A stretch of 64,000 nt of DNA from Bacteroidia bacterium. GTDB taxonomy: Bacteria; Bacteroidota; Bacteroidia; Bacteroidales; GWA2-32-17. Positions 8,618-32,639 of this stretch are shown here, piece by piece; within the stretch, counting starts at the first letter, position 1, and the number at the start of each line of letters is the position of its first letter. The notes beneath the pieces are model-generated. The model had not been told where the DNA came from. It searched no databases and saw nothing but the letters and a program-made list of their open reading frames with translations. The position numbers and the translations under genes are program-made. The stretch covers positions 124,001 through 188,000 of the forward strand of contig JACREQ010000032.1 in assembly GCA_016218155.1 (NCBI GenBank), written 5' to 3'.

Positions 8618-8682
8618 ATGTGAATAATATAAGTAATATTTAAAGTTGTGTAACGTATTAAAATTATTAAACCAGAACTTTG
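8618..8682 (+). promoter_or_regulatory. Shared 21-bp direct-repeat promoter, copy C
   Basis: TGTGAAT at 8619, ATATAAG at 8627 and GTGTAAC at 8648 (21 bp apart), CTTTG at 8678 in AGAACTTTG. The spacing to the -7 box is 30 bp here, not 31. The GTGAA/TTCAC inverted repeat of copies A, B, E and F is absent. The small gene starts at 8713. Confidence 0.7.
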
Positions 8683-8712
8683 TAACAACAAACTATTATT
8701 GAAATAACTCAA

Positions 8713-8965
8713 ATGAAAACAAAAAAAAATAAAGACTCTTTAAAAAAAAGGAGGAAATAAAATTAAACGTAAAAATTCAGCGGATTTTACCGATCCTGAA
8801 ATTAATACCGATAAAACAGTGTCAGATAATGATGCAGACAAAACAGTTAAAAGAAAAAGTTTTGAGAAAACAAAATTAGAAATAAATCCTGATTCCACAG
8901 GTATAGATACTAAAGCTGATAAAACAAAAAAAGAAAAATTTCCAGAAACAGAAAAAAACAAATAA
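8713..8965 (+). pseudogene. Small highly charged protein gene, frameshifted in a run of eight A
   Basis: The ATG at 8713 opens MKTKKNKDSLKK and then runs to TAA at 8758. Frame 2 opens at 8744, with no start codon of its own, and reads a coherent charged protein to TAA at 8963 (RKNSADFTDPEINTDKT...). Removing one A from the A8 run at 8742-8749 joins both into an 83-residue protein with a repeated D-KT(V)KRK pattern. This may be a real frameshift, a homopolymer sequencing error, or slippage on the A run. The promoter upstream (copy C) and the close partner gene at 8973 argue that the locus is used. I do not recognise a named family. Confidence 0.6.
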
Positions 8966-8972
8966 GAAAATC

Positions 8973-9116
8973 ATGGGAAATATACTTTATTTAATAGCAG
9001 TAATATTAGTTATTATATGGGCAATAGGATTCTTCGGTTACAACGTCGGTGGGATTATACATGTATTATTAGTAATTGCTTTAATCTCTGTAATATTAAG
9101 AATTATTAAAGGTTAA
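8973..9116 (+). CDS. lmo0937-family small membrane protein (first copy)
   Basis: 47 residues: starts MGNILYLIAVILVIIWAIGF, then FGYNVGG-IIHVLLVIALISV and a basic end. Two hydrophobic helices are joined by a Gly/Asn turn, as in the lmo0937 family. Members are common next to stress genes; their function is unknown. It begins 7 bp after the frameshifted small gene and so shares its transcript from promoter copy C. A paralogue lies at 27280. Confidence 0.8.
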   Translation: MGNILYLIAVILVIIWAIGFFGYNVGGIIHVLLVIALISVILRIIKG

Positions 9117-10900: not shown

Positions 10901-11694
10901 GTGAGAAAATCTTTTTTAAATAAATATTTATTTTCCAAAAGTATTGATCAATTCTTTATTGATGTTAACAATACATACAAATTTGTACTTCGCTTTTTTA
11001 AGGAAGCGTTTAATTCTCCATTTTATTTACGTGAAATTATAAATCAATGCTTTGAAATAGGTGTAAAATCCCTTCCATTAATAACTCTTACGGGTTTTAT
11101 AATAGGTATCGTCTTTACTCAACAATCAAGACCTTCTTTATCAGAATTTGGTGCACTTCTTGGTTGCCTTCGTTAGTGTCTATTGCAATTGTCAGGGCAC
11201 TTGGGGCTTTAGTTACAGCATTAATCTGTGCCGGGAAAGTTGGTTCAAGCATAGGTGCCGAATTAGGTTCAATGAGAGTTTCCGAACAAATAGATGCTAT
11301 GGAAGTTTCGGCAATAAATCCATTTAAATATTTAGTCGTAACACGTGTAATTGCAACAACTATTTCTATTCCTATATTAGGCTTATATTGTAGTGTTGTT
11401 GCACTTTTGGGCTCATATTTTAATGTTCACTCATTTGAGGCAACAAGTATAATTAGTTTTTTTAATAATGCATTTTCTACAATTACATTTTTAGATCTTT
11501 TATCATCACTTTTAAAATCCATGGTTTTTGGATTTACTATTGGAATAATAGGAACTTATAAAGGATATAATGCAATTAAAGGAACATGGGGAGTTGGTAG
11601 AGCAGCAAATCAAGCAGTTGTGCTTGCAATGTTTTTGATTTTTATAGAAGAAGTTGTAATTGTTCAAATGGCTAATTGGATTAGATATTATTAA
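10901..11694 (+). pseudogene. MlaE-type ABC transporter permease, broken by a one-base deletion
   Basis: A GTG start at 10901 gives 91 residues to the stop at 11176 (through FIIGIVFTQQSRPSLSEFGA). The rest continues in another frame from about 11164 (LPSLVSIAIVRALGALVTALICAGK...). The intact paralogue at 20521 has three residues between FGA and LPG; here there are eight bases in place of nine, so one base is missing at about 11157-11163. Repaired, the protein is about 264 residues with the MlaE motifs ALICAGKVGSSIGAELGSM and VSEQIDAME. Downstream ATPase and MCE genes are intact, which favours sequencing error or recent loss. Confidence 0.8.
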
Positions 11695-20520: not shown

Positions 20521-21363
20521 ATGAAAAAATTTACTCCTGTTATAAAAGCTAAAGTTTTTGCAAAAACCCAATCAATAAAACTTAGTGATAAAACAATAGC
20601 CAAAACAGTAATAGCAAGTAATATTTTGACTGATATTGCAGATGTGTTTTTGTTTATTTCACAAATAATAAAAGAAACATTTTCGCGAAATTTTGAGTTC
20701 AAAGAATTTTTACGTCAGTGTTTTCAAATTGGATATAAATCTTTACCACTCATCTCAATTACAGGAACTATTATGGGATTAGTTCTTACAATCCAATCAC
20801 GACCAACACTTATAAATTTTGGTGCAGTAACAATGCTCCCCGGAATGGTTGCTGAATCTTTAATAAAAGAAATGGGTCCTGTAATAACAGCACTAATTTG
20901 TGCAGGCAAAATTGGATCTGGTATGGGTGCTGAACTTGGTTCGATGAAGGTATCCGAACAAATTGAAGCAATGGAAGTGTCCTCAACTAACCCAATGCGT
21001 TTCTTAGTTGTTACAAGAGTTTTGGCAGCAACATTAATGATACCTGTATTAATATTATATGCTGACGCACTAGGAATATTTGGCAGCTGGGCTGGAGCAA
21101 ATATAAAAGGCGATGTTTCATTTTATTTATTTTTTTCACAAGCATTTAGTCATATCACATTTTTAGATTTCTTACCAGCTGTTATTAAATCATTTTTCTT
21201 CGGAGCCGTGATAGGTTTGGTAGGTTGTTACAAAGGATACAATGCAGGGCGTGGAACAGAAAGTGTGGGTATTGCTGCAAATTCTGCTGTGGTGTTAGCT
21301 TCATTAATGGTTATTATAGTTGATTTAATTGCAGTACAAATTACTGATATGCTTGTAATATGA
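20521..21363 (+). CDS. MlaE-like ABC transporter permease (second copy, intact)
   Basis: 280 residues with a 65-residue polar N-terminal extension before the MlaE core (about 70-280; five to six TM helices). Motifs: LISITGTIMGLVLTIQSRPTL, EMGPVITALICAGKIGSGMGAELGSMKVSEQIEAMEV, GAVIGLVGCYKGYNAGRGTESVG. MlaE-type permeases sit in the inner membrane with MlaF ATPase and MCE proteins and move phospholipids. It overlaps the ATPase gene by 4 bp. It is the intact homologue of the frameshifted gene at 10901 and shows what that gene should encode. Confidence 0.92.
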   Translation: MKKFTPVIKAKVFAKTQSIKLSDKTIAKTVIASNILTDIADVFLFISQIIKETFSRNFEFKEFLRQCFQIGYKSLPLISITGTIMGLVLTIQSRPTLINFGAVTMLPGMVAESLIKEMGPVITALICAGKIGSGMGAELGSMKVSEQIEAMEVSSTNPMRFLVVTRVLAATLMIPVLILYADALGIFGSWAGANIKGDVSFYLFFSQAFSHITFLDFLPAVIKSFFFGAVIGLVGCYKGYNAGRGTESVGIAANSAVVLASLMVIIVDLIAVQITDMLVI

Positions 21364-32297: not shown

Positions 32298-32639
32298 TTG
32301 AACTCTAATATTGCATTAAAGGAGTACAAGGGACTTAGTGCCGGTAAGGCTAGAGAAAAGCTACTGGCAGAAGGTTATAACAATTTACCATCTTCAAAAC
32401 CAAAAAACTTTTTTTCAATAGCTCTTAAAGTAGTTAAAGAGCCTATGTTTATACTTTTAGTTGCCTGTGGAGCTCTTTATCTATTTTTGGGTGATGTGCA
32501 AGAAGGATTAATGCTTTTAGGTTTCGTATTTGTAATAATGGGAATTGAGTTTTTTCAAGAAAAGAAAACTGAAAAAACTCTAGATGCATTAAAGGATAAT
32601 CTGTTGTTTAACTGGATTATTAAGTATCATTTGGTTTGA
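32298..32639 (+). pseudogene. P-type cation ATPase remnant (N-terminal 100 residues)
   Basis: A TTG-started 113-residue frame encodes the start of a P-type ATPase: YKGLSAGKAREKLLAEGYNNLPSSKPKNFFS, then TM1-TM2 (EPMFILLVACGALYLFLGDVQEGLMLLGFVFVIMGIEFFQE) and KKTEKTLDALKD. Homology ends there; the last residues (NLLFNWIIKYHLV) are unrelated and the gene stops. The actuator, phosphorylation (DKTGT) and remaining TM regions, normally more than 700 residues, are absent from the window. No insertion sequence marks the break. This is a deletion remnant. Confidence 0.8.

What the first reader, a model, noticed from the sequence alone, without database searches (positions are those of the whole stretch)
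8713..8965. Small stress-type gene split by an extra A in an eight-A run
Two frames, each meaningful (MKTKKNKDSLKK and the charged RKNSADFTDPE... part), join perfectly if one A of the run at 8742-8749 is dropped. The gene has a regulon promoter and a close neighbour gene, so it may be alive through transcriptional or ribosomal slippage on the A run.
Basis: partly seen in the sequence, partly recalled or inferred. Interest (0 to 1): 0.55.

Follow-up and report, generated by a model that had tools for sequence, protein, structure and literature searches.

The report
Frameshifted small stress gene, probably off
A small charged-protein gene in a bacterial stress-gene cluster is cut in two by a one-letter shift near its start; the rest of the gene looks well preserved, so the break is probably recent (or a sequencing error), and there is little to suggest that the cell reads through it.

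Summary
ATG 8713 reads 15 codons to a stop (8758-8760); a second frame, open 8744-8962, carries the rest. The joined product belongs to a real, unnamed family of short charged proteins: 25 loci in genomes of the same class, 14 of 25 with an lmo0937/DUF5670 gene beside them. In 23 of 25 the core has an ATG in its own frame. The window and one unrelated genome (L021) are split, both next to an A8 run and both needing the same shift. The tail is conserved (24 residues identical to a relative, all differences there synonymous) and is not accelerated, so the break is recent or an error. Expression through slippage is poorly supported: the needed direction is loss of one A (or gain of two), whereas published E. 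coli data show no deletion slippage on the poly(A) runs tested. The exact extra base is not settled, because relatives keep the A-run in the head's own frame. Best reading: a recent frameshift in an A-rich 5' tract that leaves the gene off. The gene lies, under an intact shared promoter element, in a ~53-kb segment of stress genes that a congener lacks; it also holds a frameshifted MlaE gene. That segment may be more interesting than the split.

The parts
8620..8653 (+). Shared regulon element GTGAATNATRTAA-N14-TNTGTAA, perfect match, upstream of the split gene
   Evidence: other sites in the window at 2367, 6828, 10568, 14320, 25686 and 30433; 11 further sites with up to 2 mismatches upstream on the same contig
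8676..8683 (+). Promoter-like AACTTTG shared with other genes behind the element (inferred)
   Evidence: read by eye from the aligned upstream regions; not tested
8713..8760 (+). Head reading frame, 15 codons plus TAA
8742..8749 (+). A8 run; the likeliest but not proven place of the extra base (any single base 8742-8760 would do)
   Evidence: comparison with relatives
8744..8965 (+). Tail reading frame with the conserved core of the family, 73 codons plus stop
8762..8764 (+). ATT with GGAGG at 8750-8754: a conceivable non-standard start for the tail
   Evidence: sequence only
8819..8821 (+). GTG, first standard start codon in the tail frame (48-aa product)
8973..9116 (+). lmo0937 family/DUF5670 small membrane protein, intact

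Best explanation
This is a genuine member of an unnamed family of short, highly charged proteins encoded in Bacteroidota stress clusters, switched off by a recent one-base frameshift in its A-rich, weakly conserved leader. Slippage of DNA polymerase on the A8 run is the likely cause (inferred). The promoter element, the tail and the downstream lmo0937 gene remain intact. Ribosomes starting at 8713 stop after 15 codons, so little or no core protein is made from that start (inferred). The allele may be a plain recent null, or one phase of a reversible A-tract; the sequence cannot tell which.
For: Head and tail both match one intact ORF in L012. 23 of 25 family loci have an ATG in frame with the core. 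Tail pairwise dN/dS is about 0.08 to 0.18 against L012, L017 and L039 (dN 0.19-0.20, dS 1.06-2.41), and outgroup distances are no longer than those of intact copies: to L018 0.33 against 0.33/0.27/0.35, to L019 0.36 against 0.35/0.41/0.43. So the protein was under selection until recently. Both split members are among the 7 of 25 loci with an A run of 8 or more in the first 75 nt; Fisher p = 0.07. High indel rates in 5' poly(A) tracts, with two independent origins of the same off allele, are documented for Listeria inlA (PMC2831843: abstract and two result sections read). A second gene nearby, MlaE, is frameshifted too: Pfam profile 1-40 in one frame, 46-211 in the next.
Against: No reads, so a consensus error is not excluded. 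Absence of decay in the tail is equally expected of an error or of a gene still expressed. The A run is not clearly longer than in relatives: L012 also has A8, in frame. Among substitutions private to one of four sequences the window has 13 nonsynonymous to 3 synonymous, against 3:4, 5:11 and 3:5 in the relatives, which could mean earlier relaxation; the outgroup distances do not support that, and the filter favours conserved sites.
Confidence: 0.52

Rival explanations
1. Assembly or consensus error: the cell's gene is intact.
For: The genome is a draft of 113 contigs; a second frameshift (MlaE) lies 2.4 kb away; the tail shows no decay.
Against: 9 of the 23 A/T runs of 8 or more in the window lie inside ORFs of 100 aa or more that stay open, and 51 of 89 runs of 7 or more do, so homopolymers are not miscalled in general. 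The MlaE break is at CTTCTTGG, not a homopolymer, and an intact MlaE-like paralogue lies at 20521-21363, so loss there is plausible. L021 shows the same kind of split in an unrelated genome.
Confidence: 0.22
2. The core is made from an internal start (ATT 8762 behind GGAGG, or GTG 8819), so the frameshift only removed a dispensable leader.
For: The leader is the least conserved part of the family; in L021 an in-frame ATG opens exactly at the core (MPDIGADKTG).
Against: ATT starts are very rare and Bacteroidota depend little on Shine-Dalgarno sites (recalled). GTG 8819 would drop half the core. The intact relatives have an ATG upstream of the core.
Confidence: 0.14
3. The gene is alive through transcriptional slippage on the A8 run.
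For: Slippage rescue of poly(A) frameshifts is known: tssM with A11 in Citrobacter (PMC4256274, abstract read) and Blochmannia/Buchnera genes (PMC3017870, passages read). A second family member is split in the same direction beside A8.
Against: Needs loss of one A or gain of two. E. coli RNA polymerase showed no deletion rescue on the poly(A) runs tested and no slippage below eight A (PMC6260861). Deletions in homopolymers are rare in E. coli transcripts (PMC5574713, passages read). The split is not conserved: 23 of 25 loci have the core in frame with an ATG.
Confidence: 0.08
4. Programmed ribosomal frameshifting joins the frames.
For: A-rich slippery run followed by GGAGG.
Against: The run suits minus-one slippage (recalled), which leads to the third frame; plus-one would be needed; relatives need no shift.
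Confidence: 0.04

Closest known systems
Listeria monocytogenes inlA 5' poly(A) tract (PMC2831843)
   Same: A one-base indel in an A run near the start truncates the protein to a few residues; the same lesion arose more than once; tail left otherwise intact
   Different: There both phases are seen among isolates and rates were measured; here one genome plus one distant homologue, no population data
Citrobacter rodentium tssM1 with A11 (PMC4256274)
   Same: Stop codon soon after an A run, downstream part in another frame
   Different: There the run is 11 A, slippage inserts A and both products were shown; here 8 A and the wrong direction
Frameshifted homopolymer genes of Blochmannia (PMC3017870)
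   Same: Single indel in poly(A), gene otherwise undecayed and not accelerated
   Different: Reduced endosymbiont genomes; here a 4.8-Mb genome in which other A/T runs stay in frame
lmo0937 family/DUF5670, YtxH and CsbD stress genes
   Same: Physical neighbours of the family
   Different: The split gene itself matches no Pfam or NCBIfam model above its cut-off

Membership tests
Short charged protein family next to lmo0937/YtxH (defined here) | Conserved core (PDxxxDKTGTD...NPDxTGIDTxADKTKK) | tested here: met
   (own tail E 8.8e-23 with the 17-row profile, which includes it); independent: 69% identity to L012
Short charged protein family next to lmo0937/YtxH (defined here) | lmo0937 or YtxH gene close by on the same strand | tested here: met
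   lmo0937 at 14 of 25 loci, the window among them; lmo0937 or YtxH at 17 of 25 (about 1.5 kb of flank or less on each side at most loci)
Short charged protein family next to lmo0937/YtxH (defined here) | Core in frame with an upstream ATG | tested here: not met
   met by 23 of 25
Programmed or rescuing transcriptional slippage | Split conserved among relatives | tested here: not met
   2 of 25 split
Programmed or rescuing transcriptional slippage | Shift reachable by the favoured slip direction (insertion) | tested here: not met
   needs -1 or +2; +1 nt leads to the third frame
Programmed or rescuing transcriptional slippage | Mixed transcripts or fusion protein | not testable with these tools
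   no reads or proteome
Phase-variable contingency locus | Long homopolymer near the 5' end | tested here: met
   A9 8721-8729 and A8 8742-8749; 7 of 25 members have a run of 8 or more
Phase-variable contingency locus | Both phases in one population | not testable with these tools
   no second genome of the species at hand; none of the 4 congeners searched has the gene
Decayed pseudogene | Disabling mutation | tested here: met
Decayed pseudogene | Further decay or accelerated evolution | tested here: not met
   no other stop in the tail; outgroup distances equal to intact copies; the private-substitution count points weakly the other way

The most novel reading that the evidence does not exclude
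The A-rich leader of this stress-protein family acts as a reversible genetic switch: A-tract slippage during replication flips the small protein off and on within populations, and two unrelated genomes were caught in the off phase.
Probability: 0.12. Interest if true: 0.5.

Novelty: new member of a known kind. Interest (0 to 1): 0.27.

Why it matters
As a split gene it is an ordinary kind of event. Its worth is what it led to: a family of short charged proteins that Pfam and NCBIfam do not name and a 53-kb block of stress genes under one shared promoter element, with related gene sets on contigs of another bacterial order. If the A-tract proves variable in populations, it would be a small contingency locus in a stress regulon.

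Tried and rejected
The first search with the tail alone hit two further genomes of 99 (G059, G077) inside frames of 1670 and 490 aa; I took them as composition matches and did not inspect them. Searches of phages and plasmids and viral contigs found nothing. Contamination of the assembly was considered: a neighbouring protein is 91% identical in a congener and the contig is collinear with it on both sides of the 53-kb segment, so rejected for the contig. My first motif pattern had a spacing error and found nothing; corrected. The antisense ORF 8740-8961 was judged a by-product of lysine-rich DNA and not pursued. The Fisher test of splits against A-run length is only suggestive (p 0.07). YtxH as a rate control was not informative, because the three copies may not be orthologues. 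No structure was predicted: the protein looks too short and charged for it to help.

Full report
What is there. The head frame from ATG 8713 reads MKTKKNKDSLKKRRK and stops at 8758-8760. The tail frame is open 8744-8962 and ends 8963-8965, with no standard start before GTG 8819. The run 8742-8749 is eight A. Reading one base fewer there joins them into 83 residues. One base lost anywhere from 8742 to 8760 would do the same, from the positions of the two stops.

It is a real gene. The joined product found one intact homologue, L012 (Bacteroidetes bacterium RIFCSPLOWO2_12_FULL_35_15), 69% identical over query residues 5-76, in a single 87-codon ORF beside a YtxH gene. Profile searches then found a member in 18 of 395 genomes of the class, 19 of 395 with a 17-row profile, 8 of 36 in the order of G974 and 1 of 10 in the order of G963; the first two counts include the window's own genome. 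In the window's own order only the window's genome has it, 1 of 393 (two-row profile). Together these are 25 distinct loci; two of them (L040, L041) are weak and differently built, one (L031) lacks the C-terminal half of the core, and one (L032) is joined in frame to a catalase-like ORF (name recalled). No Pfam or NCBIfam family fits. An lmo0937 gene lies beside 14 of 25.

Frame status of relatives. In 23 of 25 the core has an ATG in frame. The exceptions are the window and L021: ATG 1485 reads MKTTNKTSPKGGVKKNYKFRR and stops, the core lies in the +1 frame, and an A8 run is at 1524-1531. A G5 run lies close by in L021, and the core there also has an internal ATG, so the parallel is not exact. 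In L012, L017 and L039 the codons AAA AAA AG(T/C) stand in the head's own frame at the corresponding place; L012 even has eight A. So the window's run may be ancestral, with the extra base just behind it. An A gained in the run remains likelier on mutation rate (inference).

Age of the break. Tail against L012, L017 and L039: dN 0.19-0.20, dS 1.06-2.41 (near saturation), third positions changed most. A block of 24 residues (KLEINPDSTGIDTKADKTKKEKFP) is identical to L012, its DNA differences all synonymous (read by eye). Outgroup distances are no longer than for intact copies. A count of private substitutions (13 nonsynonymous to 3 synonymous in the window) points the other way but is biased to conserved sites. 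The break is therefore young, false, or tolerated.

Could it be read through? The needed change is -1 or +2 nucleotides. The third frame, reached by the commoner slips, gives no family-like protein. In E. coli, deletion rescue was not seen on the poly(A) runs tested, and nothing was detectable below eight A (PMC6260861, abstract and one section read); in E. coli transcripts deletions in homopolymers are rare (PMC5574713, passages read). Known rescues use a longer tract and insertion (PMC4256274, abstract) or concern endosymbionts (PMC3017870, passages). I rate slippage at 0.08. A 5' poly(A) lesion that recurs and switches a gene off is well documented in Listeria inlA (PMC2831843).

Surroundings. 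The gene sits behind a shared element, GTGAATNATRTAA-N14-TNTGTAA, with 7 sites of 0-2 mismatches in the window, all on the + strand. In the 124 kb of the contig examined, all 18 sites with up to 2 mismatches fall between contig positions 104,931 and 154,433. The congener G004 is collinear on both sides but lacks contig 104,554-157,716 (window about -19,446 to 33,716): its flanks lie 45 bases apart. Of 63 mechanically chosen ORFs in that segment, 47 (hand count of the rows; one is the antisense ORF over the tail) have tblastn hits in stretches of two contigs from another order (G974 C62, G873 C56), and in C56 the order ice-binding gene, charged gene, bestrophin-like gene, lipoprotein-like gene is kept. 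Whether G000 gained the block or G004 lost it is not proven; absence of the charged family from the rest of the order favours gain.

Verdict. Observation confirmed; interpretation as a living slippage gene not supported; most likely a recent off allele, with sequencing error the main rival.

Noticed in passing
window about -19,446 to 33,716 (G000:C32:104554-157716): A ~53-kb block of stress genes (Dps-like, Usp, CsbD, YtxH, lmo0937, hybrid kinases, ice-binding-like; some names by eye) absent from congener G004, with 18 copies of one promoter element all on one strand and related gene sets in another order.
   Followed up: partly
window 10901-11694: MlaE permease gene broken by a one-base shift near 11150 (CTTCTTGG, not a homopolymer); an intact second MlaE-like gene at 20521-21363.
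   Followed up: partly
window 32298-32639: Remnant of a P-type cation ATPase: only the N-terminal domain remains before the DnaJ-like gene.
   Followed up: no
window 2367, 6828, 8620, 10568, 14320, 25686, 30433: Promoter element GTGAATNATRTAA-N14-TNTGTAA, also near family loci in other genomes (L012, L017, L019, L023, L026, L027, L039); regulator unknown.
   Followed up: partly
L032 1501-3003 (-): A family core joined in frame to the end of a catalase-like ORF (catalase recalled from sequence, not tested).
   Followed up: no
L012 2489-2662: A decayed partial copy of the neighbouring YtxH gene lies upstream of the intact charged-protein gene.
   Followed up: no
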